Of a DNA stretch of 24,492 nucleotides, positions 4,396 to 23,305 are shown one piece after another. Source of the stretch: a virus. Position numbers and translations under genes: made by a program. The notes under the pieces were generated by a model that ran no database searches, had not been told where the DNA came from, and saw only the letters and a program-made list of their open reading frames with translations. Location: positions 1 to 24,492 of the IMG/VR virus record IMGVR_UViG_3300025011_000676. The stretch is one strand, 5' to 3'. Position 1 is the first letter of the stretch. Every line of letters starts with the position of its first letter.

Positions 4396-4861
4396 ATGAA
4401 AACAACAATCCATTTTGCAAGAACAAATCCAAATGCAATTATTCCATCAAAAATAGAAGAGAATGCAGGGATGGACGTATATCCATGTTTTAATGAAGAT
4501 TATATGATAATTCAATCCAATGAAACAAAAATGATTCCTACTGGAATTATTTGAAAGAAGTTCAACAGGAACAAAAGGAATTGGTCAACGATGTGGGGTT
4601 ATAGATTCTTCATATAGAGGAACATGGTTCGTACCTATTACAAATCACAATAATAAACCTATTATAATAACTAAAGAAAAAAATGAAGATGTATTAAAAT
4701 TACTACAAGATTTGGCAATAGTTTATCCATATTCTAAAGCAATTTGCCAAGTAGTATTATTGCCTGTTCCTAAAGTTAATATAGAAGAAATTGATTATGA
4801 AACATTGAAAAAATTTGAATCCGAAAGAGGAATAGGATGTTTAGATAGCACTAATAAATAA
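4396..4861 (+). pseudogene. dut: dUTPase gene broken by an internal deletion and frameshift
   Basis: dUTPase hydrolyses dUTP to dUMP, keeping uracil out of DNA and feeding thymidylate synthesis. The first frame (ATG 4396 to TGA 4552) has motif 1 (AGMDVYP) and ends at PTGII. A second frame, from about 4550 to TAA 4859, has motif 2 (FERSSTGTKGIGQR), motif 3 (GVIDSSYRGTW), motif 4 (CQVVLLPVP) and motif 5 (ERGIGCLDST). Family members normally have roughly 10-15 more residues between PTGI and the RSS motif, so I infer about 30-35 bases are missing, a number that leaves the frame shifted. It follows nrdG and precedes the terminator at 4883. It is probably inactive unless the deletion is an assembly error. 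Confidence 0.85.
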
Positions 4862-6517: not shown

Positions 6518-7936
6518 TTGGGAACTAAAAATAAAATAAGGAATTATAAATATAATAATGGAGATACGATAAAAACAAAAAATGGTGAAATTGAAATACT
6601 AGAACAAATAACAATAATAGATACTAGAAAATCTAATATAAAAGCATATAAATATAAATGCTTAATAGATGGAAATATTGATAACATAAGTGAATCTTCT
6701 TTAAAACGTGGCGTAGGTTGTAATGTATGTTCAAATAATAAAGTTTTAAAAGGTTGTAATGATTTATGGACAACACATCCTGAAATTGCTCAATTATTAA
6801 AATATCCAGAAATAGGTCATGGAATAAGTTATGGTAAAACAGAACCAGAAATATTTATTTGTCCTGACTGCGGATATAAAAAATCTATAAATATAAATTC
6901 TCTTATAAGACAAGAAAAATTTCCATGTCCAAATTGTGGTGATAGTATTTCATACCCAGAAAAATTTGGTATATTTTTATTTAATCAACTAGAAGAAATA
7001 TATATAGTAAATAATTTTGAATATCAATATAATCCTAATTGGATCAAACCTAAAAGATATGATTTTTATTTTGAATTAGATGATAAGGGTTATATTTTAG
7101 AAATAGACGGAGGATTAGGACATGGTAATTATAATCCATTTATCGGTCAATCAGCAGAAGAAACTCAAGCAATTGATGATTATAAAGATAAATTAGCAAG
7201 AGAACATGGCATAGAAGTTATTAGAATAGATTGTAGAAAATCAAATTTAGAATATATAAAAATTAATATATTACATAGTAGATTAAGTGAATTATTTGAT
7301 TTATCAAATATTAATTGGTTAAAATGTCATGAATTTGCGTGTAGTAGTTTAGTTAAAAAGGCATGTGAATTATGGAGTAATGGAATTGATAATACAAAAG
7401 AAATTGGTAAAATAATGAAATTAGGTCTGAATACTATAAGTGGTTATTTAAAACAAGGTGCTAAATTAGGTTGGTGCGATTATGATCCAGAAGAAATACA
7501 AAGAATGAATGGTAAAAATTTGAGTCAAAAAAGATTCAAACCTGTAGTTCAATTATCTTTAGACGGTAAATTTATAGCAGAATATAAAGGAGCCATAGAA
7601 GCAGAAGAAATATTAAAAATAAAAAACATAAACACAGGCATTTCTGCTTGTTGTAATAGTAGATTAAAAACAGCAAATAATTATAGATGGATGTTTAAAG
7701 AAGATTATTATAAAAATATGAATAATATTAAACCTTTGAAAAAATATGAAAGTATGACTATAAGTGTTGTTCAATTAGATTTGAATAATAATTTTATAAA
7801 AAACTGGAATAGTATAAGAGAAGTAGAAAGAGAATTAAATATATTTAATAGTGGTATAACTTCATGTTGTAAAGGAAGACATAAACAGCAGGTGGTTATA
7901 GATGGATGTACAAAGAAGATTACAATGAATACATAA
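6518..7936 (+). CDS. HE1: free-standing homing endonuclease, Vsr-like (EDxHD) core with two NUMOD1 repeats
   Basis: A 472-residue selfish DNA nuclease. Zinc-ribbon-like pairs lie at residues ~68-71, 115-118 and 137-140. The nuclease core has YDFYF (Asp182), ILEIDGGLGH (Glu195, Asp197, His202) and a helix around Asp220-Lys223, then GIEVIRIDCR, matching the Vsr-related EDxHD homing endonuclease family. A conserved WLKCHE block follows at ~268, a helix-turn-helix-like segment at ~300-315, and two NUMOD1 DNA-binding repeats at ~342-397 and ~416-472. The last 16 residues depart from NUMOD1. The neighbouring frame restores AGGYRWMYKEDY and ends at 7950, so one A seems lost near 7883-7885. The TTG start is 13 bases from AAAAGGAGG; ATT 6512 or ATA 6515 would be better spaced. 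It is a paralogue of HE2 at 22091. Confidence 0.85.
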   Translation: MGTKNKIRNYKYNNGDTIKTKNGEIEILEQITIIDTRKSNIKAYKYKCLIDGNIDNISESSLKRGVGCNVCSNNKVLKGCNDLWTTHPEIAQLLKYPEIGHGISYGKTEPEIFICPDCGYKKSININSLIRQEKFPCPNCGDSISYPEKFGIFLFNQLEEIYIVNNFEYQYNPNWIKPKRYDFYFELDDKGYILEIDGGLGHGNYNPFIGQSAEETQAIDDYKDKLAREHGIEVIRIDCRKSNLEYIKINILHSRLSELFDLSNINWLKCHEFACSSLVKKACELWSNGIDNTKEIGKIMKLGLNTISGYLKQGAKLGWCDYDPEEIQRMNGKNLSQKRFKPVVQLSLDGKFIAEYKGAIEAEEILKIKNINTGISACCNSRLKTANNYRWMFKEDYYKNMNNIKPLKKYESMTISVVQLDLNNNFIKNWNSIREVERELNIFNSGITSCCKGRHKQQVVIDGCTKKITMNT

Positions 7937-8969: not shown

Positions 8970-9327
8970 GAATAGCAATAACTACATCTATAAAAATCCA
9001 TTAGACCAAGGATATAAACAATTTTATTTAACTAAAAAGCAACATAATAAATTATTTGAACAACGTAAAATTAAATTTTATCATAAATATGAATATTATT
9101 ATAATGATAATTGTATATTGCTACATAAATTCTGTAATTGGAAAGGAATATTATTTAATACAATTATATTGCCTATAATTGTATTAATGGAAGGATTAGC
9201 AAACATAAAAGAAACTATGTATGATTATAAAAGTTTATGTAATCAAAAGAAAAGTGGTAGTTTTACTGGTGATGACATTTGTAAAGGTACAGATATGTAT
9301 AATGAAGTTATAAAAATAATATCGTAA
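8962..9327 (+). CDS. Unknown protein with one hydrophobic segment
   Basis: A 121-residue protein starting at TTG 8962, nine bases after GAAAGGAG, overlapping the preceding gene by 8 bases. An upstream in-frame ATG at 8911 lies inside the previous gene before the ribosome binding site and is not used. The N-terminal half is Lys/Tyr/Asn-rich. A hydrophobic stretch (ILFNTIILPIIVLMEGL) at about residues 65-81 may be a single membrane segment. No family is recognised. Confidence 0.6.
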   Translation: MSKNSNNYIYKNPLDQGYKQFYLTKKQHNKLFEQRKIKFYHKYEYYYNDNCILLHKFCNWKGILFNTIILPIIVLMEGLANIKETMYDYKSLCNQKKSGSFTGDDICKGTDMYNEVIKIIS

Positions 9328-9383
9328 CCAATTTTAAGATTTATTCAAATATTAAAAAATATAAATAAAGGAGGACACCTAAG

Positions 9384-10244
9384 ATAGAATTCACAAAACA
9401 AAACTTAATAAAATCGCCTTTAAACTATGTCGGAGGTAAATATAAATTACTTCCTCAAATTCTACCACTATTCCCTGACAATATAGATACATTCATTGAT
9501 TTGTTTTGTGGTGGATGTAATGTTGCAGTTAACGTTAAAGCAAATAAAATTATATGCAATGATACCATTGAAGAAGTGATCAATCTATATGATAATTTTT
9601 ATTTATTAGGTACTGAACATATTATTTATCAAATAGAATCAATAATAAAAAAATTTAATCTATCAAAAGATAATCAAGAAAACTATCTTAAATTAAGAGA
9701 ATATTATAATCACGTAAATAAAGAATGGGAATATTTCTACACATTAATATGTCATTCATTTAGTAATCAAATTAGATTCAATTCAAAAAGAGAATTTAAT
9801 TTACCATTTGGTAAGCGAACATTTAATTCTACTATGAAAGATAATTTGATTAAGTTTGTAAATTATTTGCAAGATATAAATATGGAATTCACAAATTTAG
9901 ATTTTAGAGAAGTAGACATTAGTTATTTAACCGATTCAGATTTTTGCTATATTGATCCGCCTTATTTAATCACATGTGCTACATATAATGAAAAAGGCGG
10001 ATGGAAAGAAAAAGATGAAAAAGATTTATTAAATTTACTTGATAAACTAAATGATAATGGTGTTAGATTTGCATTATCAAATGTATTAGAGAGTAAAGGT
10101 GAATCAAATGATATATTGAAAGAATGGGTTAAGGATAAGAAATATAATGTACATAATTTAGATGTTAAATATGGCAATGCAAATTATCAGAGAGTAGATA
10201 AGAATGATAGTACGACAATGGAAGTTTTGATTACGAATTATTAA
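9384..10244 (+). CDS. dam: Dam-type DNA adenine N6-methyltransferase (D12 class), ATA start
   Basis: It transfers a methyl group from S-adenosylmethionine to adenine in DNA, probably GATC. About 286 residues. SAM-binding motif SPLNYVGGKYKLL is at residues ~11-23, FIDLFCGGCN at ~37-46 and catalytic DPPYL at ~191-195, then GWKEKDEKDLLNLLDKL. Motif I begins only a few codons after AAAGGAGG (9367-9374). The only initiation-like codon there is ATA 9384, 9 bases downstream, and the first in-frame ATG/GTG/TTG is TTG 9501, which would remove motif I. An ATA start is therefore strongly implied. It is the first gene of a probable modification island with the Mom-family gene at 11445. Phage copies usually give protection from host restriction. 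Confidence 0.92.
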   Translation: MEFTKQNLIKSPLNYVGGKYKLLPQILPLFPDNIDTFIDLFCGGCNVAVNVKANKIICNDTIEEVINLYDNFYLLGTEHIIYQIESIIKKFNLSKDNQENYLKLREYYNHVNKEWEYFYTLICHSFSNQIRFNSKREFNLPFGKRTFNSTMKDNLIKFVNYLQDINMEFTNLDFREVDISYLTDSDFCYIDPPYLITCATYNEKGGWKEKDEKDLLNLLDKLNDNGVRFALSNVLESKGESNDILKEWVKDKKYNVHNLDVKYGNANYQRVDKNDSTTMEVLITNY

Positions 10245-10273
10245 TATAAACGGAAAGGAGGAAAATTAATACA

Positions 10274-10651
10274 GTGTCTAAAGAATTAATAGATGTATTT
10301 ATATGTAACATATGTGGATATGAAGATTCATCATTTTATTATAAATGTTGTCCTAAATGTAGTAATGATGAACATTATAAAATTATTGAAATGCCATTTG
10401 GTGAATATATGACTCCAAGAGATTATAATGAATTATTAAAATATATTTATAAAAATTATAATCCTTTTAAATCAGATCAACGTATAAAATATGTAGATTG
10501 TAGTTTTGATAATAGAACAGGAAGAATATTTTGCGTAACAATTAGAACATATTCTGAAGAATTTAAATTTAGTATTACAAATGAAAATAGACATAGGAAT
10601 TTAAAAGAATGGATTTATAATTGGTTAGATGAATATAAAAATAATAAATAA
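10274..10651 (+). CDS. Zinc-ribbon protein, unknown
   Basis: A 125-residue protein starting GTG, 12 bases after GGAAAGGAGG. The N-terminus has a clear zinc ribbon, C-x2-C then C-x2-C (FICNICGYED, YKCCPKCSND, residues ~10-30). The rest is a small mixed fold with aromatic residues and no catalytic motif that I recognise. It lies between dam and a P-loop protein with short spacing and is probably co-expressed with them. Confidence 0.65.
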   Translation: MSKELIDVFICNICGYEDSSFYYKCCPKCSNDEHYKIIEMPFGEYMTPRDYNELLKYIYKNYNPFKSDQRIKYVDCSFDNRTGRIFCVTIRTYSEEFKFSITNENRHRNLKEWIYNWLDEYKNNK

Positions 10652-12313: not shown

Positions 12314-12348
12314 AAATAAATATTTGAATAAATCGAACATTTTATAAA

Positions 12349-12372: not shown

Positions 12373-12466
12373 AAATGTAGTCTTCAATTGAATAAATTCA
12401 TGAGAAGATAGATGGTATGGGTCTTACCCAGTAAAAGTTAAACTTTTATTAAAATTTATATATGCA

Positions 12467-12560
12467 GTTTTAAACTAACTATATTTAAATATGACCTGGA
12501 AGATTCCTATGAAGTAAGATGTATTTTTACCGTTTTAAACTAACTATATTTAAATATGAC
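12467..12560 (+). CRISPR. Mini-CRISPR unit: two identical 29-bp repeats flanking one 36-bp spacer
   Basis: Repeat 1 is 12467-12495 and repeat 2 is 12532-12560. They are identical over all 29 bases, starting GTTTTAAACTAACTATAT and ending AAATATGAC. The spacer 12496-12531 is 36 bases and is not A+T-monotonous like its surroundings. Repeat and spacer lengths match clostridial type I-B arrays, and from memory the first 18 bases differ at about two positions from the C. difficile I-B repeat, while the 3' half differs. No cas genes are in the window. Repeat 2 ends 36 bases before the tnpB-like ATG. No third repeat was found on either side. Mini-arrays in phages are known and are thought to use host Cas proteins against rival phages. 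Confidence 0.8.
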
Positions 12561-12596: not shown

Positions 12597-13577
12597 ATGA
12601 AAGCAAATAGAGTAGAACAACATATAATAAAAAAGAATAATCCACATTGGAAGATAGTAGATAATCTATGTTTTAAATCTAAAAATATTTATAATTATGC
12701 TAATTATATAATAAGGCAAATATTTATTATTACAAATTTATTGAAAGATAATAAAGAAATTACACAAGAACAATCAGATTTTTTAAAATGGGTAAATGAT
12801 AATGTGGATGAATATAATAAAAATAAACTGAAAAATCTAGATATAAAACAATCCAAAGGAAGAAATTTAGATAAAGTATTTAAATCACTTGAATATTTTG
12901 ATAAAAATAATAGAGTATGTAGATATGATTTTTTAGATTATATTACAAAATATAGTGAACCATTTATAGATTTAGGTTCAAGTAGTTCACAACAAACTTT
13001 GAAAGTATTAGATAAAAATTGGAAATCATTCTTTGCAGGTATTAAAGGATGGAGTAAAAATCCTGAAAAATATCTAGGTAGACCAAAATTGCCTAAATAC
13101 AAACATAAAGAAAAAGGCAGAAAAGAATTAATTTTAACAAACGTACAATCAAAAATAATTGACGGATATTTATTCTTTTCATTTCATCCATTAAAACCAT
13201 TAAATAATACTTTTAAAACTAATATTATTGGTAAATTAATGCAAACAAGATTTATACCAAAAGGTGATACATATGTAATGGAAATTGTTTATGAGATTGA
13301 CATTCCTGAACAAATGAGTTATAATGTAAATATAATTGGAATAGATATTGGAGTAGACAATTTAGCAACAGTAGGAAATAATATTGGATTAAAACCATTT
13401 GTAATTAACGGAAAACCACTTAAATCAATGAATCAATTTTATAATAAAGAAAAATCTAATAGTCAAAGTCATTTAAAATTAAAATATGATAAGAATTGGA
13501 GTAATAAACTTCAACAATTAACTAATAAAAGAAATAATAAAATAACTGATTACATACATAAAGCAAGTAAATATTAA
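12597..13577 (+). CDS. tnpB: Truncated TnpB/IS605 OrfB-like (Cas12-related) protein lacking RuvC-II, zinc ribbon and RuvC-III
   Basis: TnpB proteins are RNA-guided nucleases of IS200/IS605 elements and ancestors of Cas12. This 326-residue ORF (ATG, AAAGGAG upstream) keeps the N-terminal RNA- and DNA-binding lobe, the ILTNVQSKI and FSFHPLKPL strands, and RuvC-I GIDIGVDNLAT with catalytic Asp at ~250, then NGKPLKSMNQFYNK and KRNNKITDYIHKASKY. It stops exactly where the strand leading to the RuvC-II Glu should begin. None of the three frames downstream restores RuvC-II, the CxxC zinc ribbon or RuvC-III. It should therefore not cut DNA but may still bind guide RNA. There is no TnpA, and no 3' omega-RNA region remains. 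A 9-bp direct repeat (AGTAAATAT) sits at the truncation point. Confidence 0.85.
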   Translation: MKANRVEQHIIKKNNPHWKIVDNLCFKSKNIYNYANYIIRQIFIITNLLKDNKEITQEQSDFLKWVNDNVDEYNKNKLKNLDIKQSKGRNLDKVFKSLEYFDKNNRVCRYDFLDYITKYSEPFIDLGSSSSQQTLKVLDKNWKSFFAGIKGWSKNPEKYLGRPKLPKYKHKEKGRKELILTNVQSKIIDGYLFFSFHPLKPLNNTFKTNIIGKLMQTRFIPKGDTYVMEIVYEIDIPEQMSYNVNIIGIDIGVDNLATVGNNIGLKPFVINGKPLKSMNQFYNKEKSNSQSHLKLKYDKNWSNKLQQLTNKRNNKITDYIHKASKY

Positions 13578-13579
13578 GT

Positions 13580-13723
13580 AAATATAAACAAAACGGTGCA
13601 AAAAATTCTTGTATAGCAAAAATTCATCCTGGATTAAAAAATGATAAATATATTGTAGAATCACTTAATAATTTAATAGATTATATTAGAGATAACTATG
13701 ATATGGAGAGATTAAGTAAATAA
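13580..13723 (+). pseudogene. Orphan C-terminal ORF next to the tnpB truncation point
   Basis: An open frame with no start codon runs from just after the tnpB stop to TAA 13721. It encodes ~47 plausible residues (KNSCIAKIHPGLKND, then LIDYIRDNYDMERLSK). This is not the missing TnpB C-terminus. It looks like the 3' end of another gene whose start was lost when the tnpB region was inserted or deleted. The family is not recognised. Confidence 0.4.
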
Positions 13724-16630: not shown

Positions 16631-16650
16631 AAGAAAGGAGAGTGTTTACT

Positions 16651-17598
16651 ATCAACATAAATAATCAAACAAGATGTATTAACTCTAATCAATACACACT
16701 AGAAAATCTACTCAATCTATGCGATACAACTGATAAAGTAAAATCAATTGCATCAACTTCAGATGGATTAAAATACCTAAAAACAATTCTATCAGATAAA
16801 AGGGCAATGCTTTATTTCAAGCAATCAAGCACTAGAACATTTTTATCCTTCCAAAACGCATGTCATATATTAGGAATATCTACATCTGAAATTAGAGATA
16901 CATCAACATCATCAGAAACTAAAGGTGAAAGTGAATTAGATGCAATTAAAACTTTCTCACAATATTCTGATTTAATTATTATGAGACATCCATCTTCAGA
17001 TTTTATTTATGAAATATCTAATAATCTATCTGATAAAACAAGAATTATCAATGCAGGAAGTGGATCTGACCAACATCCCACACAAGCATTATTAGACTTC
17101 TATACTATCTATAAATACGGTTTAGAAAATAAGAAAGTTGCTTTTGTAGGTGATCTATTAAGAGGACGTACAGTTAGATCGTTATCATTACTATTAAATA
17201 AAGTTAATGGTACTAAATTATATTTTGTTTCACCTAAACAATTTCAAATTAAATCTGATATATTAGAACAATTAAATGTAGATTATGAAATCACAGATGA
17301 TTTTGAAAAGGTATTGCCTGATATGGATGTAGTTTATATGGTGAGATTGCAAGATGAATATAAACACGAAGTTATTAATGAAAATGAAATTATAGATACA
17401 AGTAAATATAGTATTAATAGTAGTAATGTAAACAAAATGAAAAATGATGCAATTATACTTCATCCACTTCCTAGAAGAGATGAAATTAGTGTTGAAGTTG
17501 ATAAAGATAAAAGAGCAAAGTATTGGGAACAGGTTGAAAACGGGATGTGGGTAAGAGTAGGGTTAATTATGAGTATGTTTGGTGCAAGTAAATTATAA
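16651..17598 (+). CDS. pyrB: Aspartate carbamoyltransferase catalytic chain, phage-encoded
   Basis: It makes carbamoyl-aspartate from carbamoyl phosphate and aspartate, the committed step of pyrimidine synthesis. About 315 residues, a normal length. Family residues are all present: SSTRT (phosphate loop), TSSETKGES (matching the E. coli Ser80/Lys84 loop), MRHP, DQHPTQALLDF (His134/Gln137), GDLLRGRTVRSL (Arg167), VRLQDEY (Arg229/Gln231) and HPLPRRDEI. This distinguishes it from ornithine carbamoyltransferase. The start is uncertain: GTG 16642 overlaps the AAAGGAG (16634-16640), and the best-spaced codon is ATC 16651. No regulatory subunit PyrI is nearby. Together with NrdDG and ThyX it would raise pyrimidine supply during infection. 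Confidence 0.93.
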   Translation: MNINNQTRCINSNQYTLENLLNLCDTTDKVKSIASTSDGLKYLKTILSDKRAMLYFKQSSTRTFLSFQNACHILGISTSEIRDTSTSSETKGESELDAIKTFSQYSDLIIMRHPSSDFIYEISNNLSDKTRIINAGSGSDQHPTQALLDFYTIYKYGLENKKVAFVGDLLRGRTVRSLSLLLNKVNGTKLYFVSPKQFQIKSDILEQLNVDYEITDDFEKVLPDMDVVYMVRLQDEYKHEVINENEIIDTSKYSINSSNVNKMKNDAIILHPLPRRDEISVEVDKDKRAKYWEQVENGMWVRVGLIMSMFGASKL

Positions 17599-22090: not shown

Positions 22091-23305
22091 TTGAGAAATA
22101 AAAATAAAAATAGTAAATCATTTGAACAATGGTGTATTGATAACAATAGACAGGATGTATTAGATAGATGGGATTATGAATTAAATGATTGTAAACCAAG
22201 TGAAATTTCATTTGGAAGTAGTAGTAAAAAATATTATTTCAAATGTCCAAAAGGAATACATAAGAGTGAGTTAAAGAATATTAGTAGTTTTACAAGTGGA
22301 AAACAAAATAATTTAAATTGTAATCAATGTAATATGATTGCTACTACTCATCCATATTTAATAAAATATTTCACTAACAAAGAAGATTCAGAAAAATATT
22401 CAAAAGGGTCACATGCTAATATCCCTATGAAATGTCCTGATTGTAAATTTGAAAAATTAACTATGGTATCTAATTTAGTGAAACAAGGATTTGGTTGTCC
22501 AAAATGTAAAAAAAATTATTATCCAGAAAGATTTTTCATTAATTTCTTAGAACAATTAAATATTAAATTTTCAACACAATTATCAAAAACAACATTTGAA
22601 TGGTGTAATGATTATTATTATGATTTTTATATACAGTTATTTAATATAATAATTGAAACACATGGTTTACAGCATTATAAACAAAATAAAGGAAAAGGTA
22701 ATTGGGTAAATTTAAAAGAAACGCAAAAAAGAGATAAAATAAAAGAACAACTGGCAAAAGAAAATAATATAAACAATTATATAGTTTTAGATTGCAGATA
22801 CTCTACTTTAAAATGGATTAAAAATAATATTATGAATAGTGAATTACCAACATTATTAAATTTTAAAGAAAATGATATTGATTGGTTAAAATGCCATGAG
22901 TCTGCTTGTAAAGGATTAATTAAAATTGCTTGTGATTTATGGAATGAAGGTAAAACTACTATAATTGAGATTTCCAAAAAATTAAATGTATGTCGTAATA
23001 CAGTTAAAACATATATAAAACAAGGATCAAAATTAGGATTATGCAATTATAATTCAGAAGAAGAAATTAAAAAAAGTAATACTATAATGCAAAAAAAACG
23101 ATGTATAAAAGTAATATGTTTAACAACTGGAGAAATATTTAATTCTTTGATAGAAGCAGAGAATAAATATAATATATATAATAGTTCTATTTCTCGATGT
23201 TGTAAAGGAAAATATAAATCAGCAGGTAAACACTTAGAAACAGAAGAACCTTTAAAGTGGATGTATTATGATGAATACATAGAACAACAAAATAAAAGTT
23301 TCTAA
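22091..23305 (+). CDS. HE2: homing endonuclease, Vsr-like (EDxHD) core with NUMOD1 domain
   Basis: A 404-residue free-standing homing endonuclease starting TTG 22091, seven bases after AGGAGG. Zinc-ribbon-like pairs are at residues ~77-80, 115-118 and 136-139. The nuclease core has YYDFY (Asp178), IIETHGLQHY (Glu189, His191, His195) and a helix with KRDKIKEQLA (Asp215), then IVLDCR. It shares with HE1 the block WLKCHESAC near 266 and LWNEGKTT, a helix-turn-helix-like segment at ~290-312 ending KQGSKLG, and a C-terminal NUMOD1 (CIKVICLTTGEIFNSLIEAE, then SISRCCKGKYKSAGKH). Unlike HE1 it has one NUMOD1 and an intact frame. It probably cuts a homologous site in related phages to spread itself. 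Confidence 0.85.
   Translation: MRNKNKNSKSFEQWCIDNNRQDVLDRWDYELNDCKPSEISFGSSSKKYYFKCPKGIHKSELKNISSFTSGKQNNLNCNQCNMIATTHPYLIKYFTNKEDSEKYSKGSHANIPMKCPDCKFEKLTMVSNLVKQGFGCPKCKKNYYPERFFINFLEQLNIKFSTQLSKTTFEWCNDYYYDFYIQLFNIIIETHGLQHYKQNKGKGNWVNLKETQKRDKIKEQLAKENNINNYIVLDCRYSTLKWIKNNIMNSELPTLLNFKENDIDWLKCHESACKGLIKIACDLWNEGKTTIIEISKKLNVCRNTVKTYIKQGSKLGLCNYNSEEEIKKSNTIMQKKRCIKVICLTTGEIFNSLIEAENKYNIYNSSISRCCKGKYKSAGKHLETEEPLKWMYYDEYIEQQNKSF

What the first reader, a model, noticed from the sequence alone, without database searches (positions are those of the whole stretch)
12467..12560. Cas-less mini-CRISPR in a phage genome with a clostridial I-B-like repeat
Two 29-bp copies are identical at every base, separated by exactly 36 bp of unrelated sequence. 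This is CRISPR geometry, not iteron geometry. The 5' half of the repeat resembles clostridial type I-B repeats (from memory), but the 3' half, which forms the crRNA 5' tag, differs. It sits with no cas genes between mom and a truncated tnpB. The likeliest role is to hijack host type I-B Cas proteins to exclude rival phages, as proposed for mini-arrays in other phages and archaeal viruses.
Basis: partly seen in the sequence, partly recalled or inferred. Interest (0 to 1): 0.85.

Follow-up and report, generated by a model that had tools for sequence, protein, structure and literature searches.

The report
Split guide RNA beside truncated TnpB
What looked like a lone type I-B mini-CRISPR in a phage is the guide-RNA part of a small TnpB/Cas12-like system (a detached scaffold RNA, two repeats and one guide) whose nuclease gene next door has lost its cutting half; it captures in viral genomes the step by which a transposon guide RNA becomes a CRISPR.

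Summary
The two identical 29-bp copies and the spacer between them are real and far beyond chance, but they are not a Cas-less type I-B array. Eleven bases upstream of repeat 1 lies an RNA scaffold (12377-12455) homologous to the omegaRNA scaffold that normally sits at the 3' end of tnpB genes: a covariance model trained only on 17 canonical 3'-end scaffolds finds it at E = 3e-6 (next best in the window, E = 2.3). The last four bases of repeat 1 (GACC) pair with that scaffold's hairpin loop (GGTC), a pseudoknot that covaries across the family. The gene 36 bp downstream is a TnpB-family RNA-guided nuclease. The same order occurs in three viral contigs and one Tissierellia contig with full-length TnpB; three of these form one well-supported clade with the window protein. 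This is a split omegaRNA (tracrRNA-like scaffold plus crRNA) of a phage-borne TnpB/Cas12 system of the 'TranC'/type V-U kind. In the window TnpB ends after residue 326, lacking two RuvC catalytic residues and a foldable RuvC domain, so this copy is a non-cleaving relic or works with a nuclease outside the fragment. No protospacer and no host array with this repeat were found.

The parts
12377..12455 (+). tracrRNA-like scaffold, homologous to the 3'-end omegaRNA scaffold of canonical tnpB genes: stem A (12380-12385/12404-12409), ATAG linker, hairpin GGTA/TACC (12414-12417/12425-12428) with loop TGGGTCT, third stem (12431-12438/12442-12449)
   Evidence: Model R1 built from 17 canonical tnpB 3' ends hits here with 30.3 bits, E 2.9e-6; next-best place in the window 10.4 bits, E 2.3. 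Single-strand fold recovers stem A and the third stem.
12454..12464 (+). putative anti-repeat segment (AUUUAUAUAUG) that pairs with repeat bases about 12480-12490
   Evidence: Minimum-energy fold of 12377-12496. The homologous position pairs in L078, L019 and L022 (p 0.0025, 0.0015, 0.0025), not significant in the window alone (p 0.15).
12420..12423 (+). GGTC, loop strand of the pseudoknot, partner of 12493-12496
12467..12496 (+). repeat 1 (30 nt; bases 12493-12496 GACC form the pseudoknot strand just before the guide)
   Evidence: loop/end tetramers complementary in 21 of 21 loci, with GGTT/AACC, CGTT/AACG, TGTT/AACA and GGTC/GACC types.
12497..12531 (+). spacer = predicted guide (TGGAAGATTCCTATGAAGTA...); target unknown
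   Evidence: No match in phages, none to its 21-mer GGAAGATTCCTATGAAGTAAG in viral contigs, none in relatives apart from one 3-mismatch hit in a 3.1 Mb genome whose reversed control also gives one.
12532..12560 (+). repeat 2, terminal copy (29 nt identical, then GACA instead of GACC, so the pseudoknot strand is broken)
   Evidence: the terminal repeats of L078, L019 and L022 are degenerate too.
12597..13577 (+). truncated TnpB-family RNA-guided nuclease gene, 326 aa; keeps WED/REC and the RuvC-I aspartate, lacks the RuvC-II and RuvC-III residues and the 3'-end omegaRNA scaffold
   Evidence: NCBIfam NF040570 guided_TnpB 102.8 bits against cut-off 100; Pfam OrfB_IS605; alignment to intact L078, L020, L019, L022; AF2 model confident to about residue 235, pLDDT 37-55 in 241-280.

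Best explanation
The unit is the guide-RNA module of a phage-borne TnpB/Cas12-type system in which the transposon's single omegaRNA has been split in two. An upstream scaffold RNA (12377-12455) acts as tracrRNA. Each CRISPR-like repeat supplies the 3' strand of the omegaRNA (anti-repeat helix and terminal pseudoknot) followed by a spacer used as guide. The effector is the TnpB-family protein encoded just downstream. Shown by sequence comparison: the homology of the scaffold, the pseudoknot covariation, the same order in four other loci with intact TnpB, and the truncation here. Inferred: that the RNAs are made and processed, that they guide the effector, and what they target. In this copy the effector has lost most of RuvC, so it cannot be expected to cut by itself. 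The likeliest state is a recently disarmed system, either on its way out or using a full-length TnpB encoded elsewhere in the same phage or in the cell.
For: (1) Model R1, trained on 17 canonical tnpB 3'-end scaffolds from loci without upstream arrays, hits the window at 12377-12455 with E 2.9e-6. It also hits the equivalent place upstream of tnpB in L020 (1.3e-7), L022 (2.6e-7), L019 (1e-6) and L078 (6e-4). In 74 other related loci scanned, no hit lay upstream of the matched tnpB with the exception of one extra copy 4.9 kb away in L036; nearly all hits are the 3'-end copy. (2) Pseudoknot: loop tetramer and last four bases before the guide are complementary in 21 of 21 loci, cis and split, against a permuted mean of 8.8. 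On the excerpt alignment 97.5% of cells pair, five pairs have double changes, and slid controls pair in at most 59%. ISDra2 omegaRNA has such a pseudoknot between bases -5..-3 and -103..-105 (PMC10097598). (3) L078 (Tissierellia MAG contig) has scaffold, 3-4 repeats with periods 65/71 and an intact 463-aa TnpB sharing the window protein's internal insertion. L019, L020 and L022 show the same order. (4) Window, L078, L020 and L019 TnpB form one clade at 100/99 support; L022 lies elsewhere. (5) Repeats align end to end with those of L020, L078 and L022. (6) The intact L078 protein folds like AsCas12f and ISDra2 TnpB.
Against: There is no RNA evidence. The anti-repeat helix of the AT-rich window is not significant on its own (p 0.15; fold z -1.5). 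No protospacer was found for the spacers tested from the window, L078, L019 and L022. The effector is truncated, so the system as found is not expected to cleave. The array has one spacer. The pseudoknot table uses ends of cis RNAs that I located by eye, and related sequences inflate the permutation test. The window is a 24.5-kb fragment.
Confidence: 0.88

Rival explanations
1. Cas-less type I-B mini-array that hijacks the host's type I-B proteins to exclude rival phages.
For: Length, spacing and 5' half (GTTTTAnnnTAACTAT) resemble clostridial I-B repeats: 17 of 29 identical to a repeat printed in PMC8473940. Viral mini-arrays with host repeats are known (PMC11656645).
Against: The repeat belongs to a homologous series of TnpB-linked repeats and its 3' end pairs with the upstream scaffold. 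No host array with this repeat in 391 genomes; no other viral contig has it; no protospacer in a rival phage.
Confidence: 0.04
2. Operator or promoter duplication upstream of tnpB; the repeats are protein-binding sites.
For: Only two copies; each holds a 12-bp palindrome ATATTTAAATAT; intergenic.
Against: Homologous loci have 2-4 copies with different spacers at CRISPR spacing, with a separate scaffold that covaries with the repeat ends. No further copy in the window or in relative G001.
Confidence: 0.03
3. Same anatomy as the best explanation, but a dead remnant: the split guide RNA of an inactivated TnpB system with no present function.
For: TnpB lacks RuvC-II/III; AF2 does not fold its RuvC part; only one spacer; repeat 2 is degenerate at its end; the 3'-end omegaRNA is gone.
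Against: Scaffold and pseudoknot strand of repeat 1 are intact; the retained TnpB part keeps 37 of 39 family-conserved residues and dN/dS against L078 is about 0.22, although that average covers both branches.
Confidence: 0.45
4. Same anatomy, used in trans: a full-length TnpB from elsewhere in this phage or from a co-resident element uses this scaffold and guide.
For: Relative G001 carries an intact homologous TnpB at 219-1430 and a second, shorter TnpB-like ORF; the RNA parts in the window are intact; the window is only a fragment.
Against: No second TnpB was recognised in the 24.5 kb; G001's TnpB sits in another clade, so cross-use is unproven.
Confidence: 0.3

Closest known systems
TranC, transposon-CRISPR intermediates (Jin et al., Cell 2025; from memory, not held in the library)
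   Same: TnpB-like effector beside a short array; guide RNA functionally split into tracrRNA and crRNA; omegaRNA/reRNA scaffold retained at the gene's 3' end in L019, L020 and L078
   Different: The loci here are in viral contigs or a phage-like contig; in the window the effector's end and its 3' omegaRNA are lost, leaving only the split guide RNA. Whether this lineage is one of the published TranC groups could not be tested.
Type V-U candidates (TnpB-like proteins linked to arrays; PMC12669027), incl. V-U TnpB/Cas14a in C. novyi sensu lato (PMC8473940)
   Same: About 50 independent associations of TnpB with CRISPR arrays or adaptation modules are inferred; similar TnpB-array neighbours in clostridial mobile elements
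   Different: Those C. novyi repeats differ from this one; no tracrRNA link was described in the passages read
Cas12f (type V-F)
   Same: Dual RNA, compact effector, best PDB fold match for L078 TnpB (AsCas12f, TM 0.57-0.61)
   Different: Sequence falls under guided_TnpB, far below the Cas12f2 cut-off (51 against 450 bits)
ISDra2 TnpB-omegaRNA
   Same: Scaffold with stems and a terminal pseudoknot next to the guide (PMC10097598)
   Different: ISDra2 uses one unsplit RNA; here the scaffold is upstream of the gene and detached from the guide
Viral type I mini-arrays (PMC11656645)
   Same: One or two spacers between repeats in a virus
   Different: Those repeats equal host repeats; this one is tied to its own scaffold and TnpB

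Membership tests
Type V-U / TranC-like TnpB-CRISPR | TnpB/Cas12-family gene adjacent to the array | tested here: met
   Repeat 2 ends 36 bp before tnpB, same strand; NF040570 102.8 bits
Type V-U / TranC-like TnpB-CRISPR | At least two repeats with spacer at CRISPR spacing | tested here: met
   Two copies, period 65; L078 periods 65 and 71
Type V-U / TranC-like TnpB-CRISPR | Separate tracrRNA homologous to the omegaRNA scaffold | tested here: met
   Model R1, E 2.9e-6; also L019, L020, L022, L078
Type V-U / TranC-like TnpB-CRISPR | Repeat 3' end forms the guide-proximal pseudoknot with the scaffold | tested here: met
   GGTC 12420-12423 / GACC 12493-12496; covariation
Type V-U / TranC-like TnpB-CRISPR | Anti-repeat:repeat helix | tested here: inconclusive
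   Significant in L078, L019, L022; not in window or L020
Type V-U / TranC-like TnpB-CRISPR | Intact RuvC catalytic residues in the effector | tested here: not met
   Window protein ends at residue 326, before RuvC-II/III; relatives intact
Type V-U / TranC-like TnpB-CRISPR | Omega/reRNA kept at the gene's 3' end (TranC) | tested here: not met
   Absent in window owing to truncation; present in L019, L020, L078
Type V-U / TranC-like TnpB-CRISPR | crRNA and tracrRNA guide DNA cleavage | not testable with these tools
   Needs expression and cleavage assay
Type I-B mini-array (host-dependent) | Repeat identical or near-identical to a host I-B repeat | tested here: not met
   0 of 391 genomes of the class searched within 3 mismatches; the host of this phage itself is unknown
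Type I-B mini-array (host-dependent) | I-B type 3' tag in the repeat | tested here: not met
   Ends AAATATGAC(C); the I-B-like repeat from PMC8473940 ends AAATGTAAAT
Type I-B mini-array (host-dependent) | Spacer matches a related virus | tested here: not met
   No match in phages, viral contigs (21-mer), G001, G003-G005
Canonical IS200/IS605 TnpB-omegaRNA | Scaffold overlaps the 3' end of tnpB, guide directly follows | tested here: not met
   In the window the scaffold is upstream of the gene and the gene's 3' end is missing

The most novel reading that the evidence does not exclude
The truncated but conserved TnpB (WED/REC with no foldable RuvC domain) still binds its split guide RNA and acts as a nuclease-free, CRISPR-programmed DNA-binding repressor in a phage, or the phage keeps an effector-free split guide RNA that commandeers TnpB proteins of co-infecting elements.
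Probability: 0.15. Interest if true: 0.8.

Novelty: new member of a known kind. Interest (0 to 1): 0.55.

Why it matters
It shows, in viral contigs and with covariation as evidence, the predicted step from a transposon's single omegaRNA to a tracrRNA-crRNA pair with a small array (the splitting hypothesis stated in PMC10097598). L019, L020 and L078 keep both the old 3'-end omegaRNA scaffold and the new split RNA, and so give compact, testable intermediates. The architecture appears in two separate branches of one TnpB tree. It also warns that 'Cas-less' phage mini-arrays beside a 'transposase' may carry their own effector.

Tried and rejected
Similarity of the window to plasmids gave single-copy, low-scoring AT-rich hits in Paraclostridium, with no array. 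Phage blastn hits were AT-rich chance. Mom-based search of viral contigs gave one weak locus without an array. Scanning viral contigs for the scaffold hairpin sequence returned mostly unrelated chance hits plus L019 and L020. A loose scan for the window-type repeat returned chance AT-rich hits; L215 was the nearest and has no TnpB and no scaffold. Duplex energies of scaffold against repeat did not exceed shuffles in the loci scored. Rfam found nothing. An apparent extension of the repeat to 46 nt rests on 11 of 17 bases and was not pursued. The TranC paper was not found in the library and the TnpB/Cas12 survey (PMC10691335) is not held.

Full report
Observation. Two copies of GTTTTAAACTAACTATATTTAAATATGAC lie at 12467-12495 and 12532-12560 on the + strand, identical at all 29 bases, start to start 65. 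In five Markov-randomised copies of the window the longest exact repeat at distances of 40-120 was 11-13 nt. The record is a 24,492-base viral fragment and holds no third copy. No other viral contig holds the exact repeat.

Surroundings. Upstream is a Mom-family gene (Pfam PF25680, 178.6 bits). Downstream, 36 bp after repeat 2 and on the same strand, is a gene of 326 codons that passes the NCBIfam cut-off for 'RNA-guided endonuclease TnpB family protein' (NF040570, 102.8 against 100 bits). The nearest relative of the phage, G001 (IMGVR_UViG_3300025000_000086, 70.8 kb), is largely colinear and about 90% identical at nrdD. It lacks the mom-array region and carries an intact TnpB of the same broad family elsewhere, without an array.

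The key comparison. Relatives of the window TnpB were collected from viral contigs and genomes. Four loci share the unusual layout scaffold - repeats - tnpB: L019, L020 (one repeat unit) and L022 in viral contigs, and L078, a contig of a Tissierellia MAG with phage-like genes. L078 carries two near-identical repeats, GTTTTAACTTACATATnTGTGTGAATATAACC, a divergent third and a degenerate last one, and a full-length 463-aa TnpB that shares the window protein's internal insertion of about 57 residues. A maximum-likelihood tree puts window, L078, L020 and L019 in one clade with 100/99 support; L022 lies elsewhere, so the layout arose at least twice or was lost repeatedly.

The scaffold. Canonical members of this TnpB family carry their omegaRNA scaffold at the 3' end of the gene (stem A, ATAG, hairpin GGGTGTAGGGTTACACCC, third stem), which probably explains why the proteins end in GIEGVGLHP. 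A covariance model, R1, was built from 17 such 3' ends, all from loci without an upstream array. With filters off it hits the window once convincingly: 12377-12455, 30.3 bits, E 2.9e-6, 11 bp before repeat 1; the next best place scores 10.4 bits. It hits the same relative place in L020, L022, L019 and L078 (E 1e-7 to 6e-4), each of which also keeps the 3'-end copy. In 74 other related loci scanned, no hit lay just upstream of tnpB; nearly all hits are the 3'-end copy (L036 has a second copy far upstream at 284-359, presumably another element). The window has lost the 3'-end copy together with the end of the gene.

The pseudoknot. In canonical RNAs the four bases just before the guide are the complement of the loop of the scaffold hairpin: GGTT with AACC, CGTT with AACG (L093, L095, L041), TGTT with AACA (L091, L087, L113), GGCTT with AAGCC (L097, L098). 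The split loci obey the same rule between scaffold loop and repeat end: window and L020 GGTC with GACC, L019, L078 and L022 GGTT with AACC. All 21 loci tabulated are fully complementary; random re-pairing gives 8.8 on average. On an alignment of excerpts, 97.5% of cells pair and five pairs show changes on both sides; slid controls pair in at most 59%. Caveats: I located the ends of the canonical RNAs by eye, the excerpt alignment is a hand-made composite in which the L097 row is one base out of register (which lowers the score), and related sequences inflate the permutation. ISDra2 omegaRNA has a pseudoknot of this kind, and its authors proposed that tracrRNA-crRNA pairs arose by splitting the omegaRNA (PMC10097598). 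This places the end of repeat 1 at 12496, so the repeat is 30 nt and the guide begins at 12497. Repeat 2 ends GACA and is a degenerate terminal repeat.

Anti-repeat. The segment after the third stem pairs with the repeat in L078, L019 and L022 (p 0.0025, 0.0015, 0.0025 by shuffling), but not significantly in L020 (0.18) or the window (0.15), both very AT-rich. The minimum-energy fold of 12377-12496 does show it, but the fold as a whole is not exceptional (z -1.5). Duplex energies did not exceed shuffles where scored.

The effector. The window protein keeps 37 of 39 family-conserved residues over its length, and dN/dS against L078 is about 0.22 (0.16/0.72; an average over both branches). It ends before RuvC-II and RuvC-III. 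AF2 models its first 235 residues confidently, but residues 241-280 fall to pLDDT 37-55; the intact L078 protein models at mean 86.7 and matches AsCas12f and ISDra2 TnpB. The sequence after 13577 holds no recognisable continuation of tnpB in any frame.

Targets and hosts. No spacer tested from the window, L078, L019 or L022 matches a phage record. The window guide's 21-mer has no exact match in viral contigs, and the one 3-mismatch match of its 20-mer in related records is at chance level by the reversed control. The repeat is absent with up to 3 mismatches from 391 genomes of the class of L078's host; the window phage's own host is unknown.

Interpretation. The unit is a split omegaRNA: tracrRNA-like scaffold plus a one-spacer array, cognate to the TnpB beside it. 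It works like, and is built like, the TranC (from memory, Jin et al. 2025) and type V-U systems (PMC12669027). It fails two membership features in this copy, intact RuvC and the retained 3' omegaRNA, both through the truncation; relatives meet them. I therefore file the lineage as a new, phage-borne member of a known kind and the window copy as a disarmed one. Whether it is dead, helped in trans, or acts without cleavage is open; I put these at roughly 0.45, 0.3 and 0.15.

Noticed in passing
window 12318-12340: AATATTTGAATAAATCGAAC resembles the right-end tail that precedes the guide in canonical tnpB elements of this family (L020 AATATTTGAATAAATTCGAGG). It may be a relic of another TnpB right end between mom and the scaffold, or chance in AT-rich DNA.
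   Followed up: no
window 4396-4860: The dUTPase-like gene appears interrupted: the frame from 4396 stops at 4554 and the coding sequence seems to continue in another frame; G001 has an intact 161-aa copy (L015 12541-13026).
   Followed up: no
L015 (G001) about 9073-10484: nrdD of the relative carries an in-frame insertion of about 470 codons that looks like an intein and that the window nrdD lacks.
   Followed up: no
window 6518-7936 and 22091-23305: Two related endonuclease-like ORFs (NUMOD1 in one, DUF4379 zinc finger in the other) share repeated segments of 70-73% DNA identity.
   Followed up: no
window 13565-13590: The tnpB truncation point lies at a short tandem duplication, AAGTAAATATT AAGTAAATATA, followed by an unrelated 47-codon open stretch with no PHROG match.
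   Followed up: partly
window 16642-17598: The phage encodes an aspartate/ornithine carbamoyltransferase-type enzyme, unusual cargo for a phage.
   Followed up: no
L053 6511-6588, L103 7587-7663, L036 284-359: Second scaffold hits (model R1) away from the matched tnpB, possibly orphan omegaRNAs or second tnpB copies.
   Followed up: no
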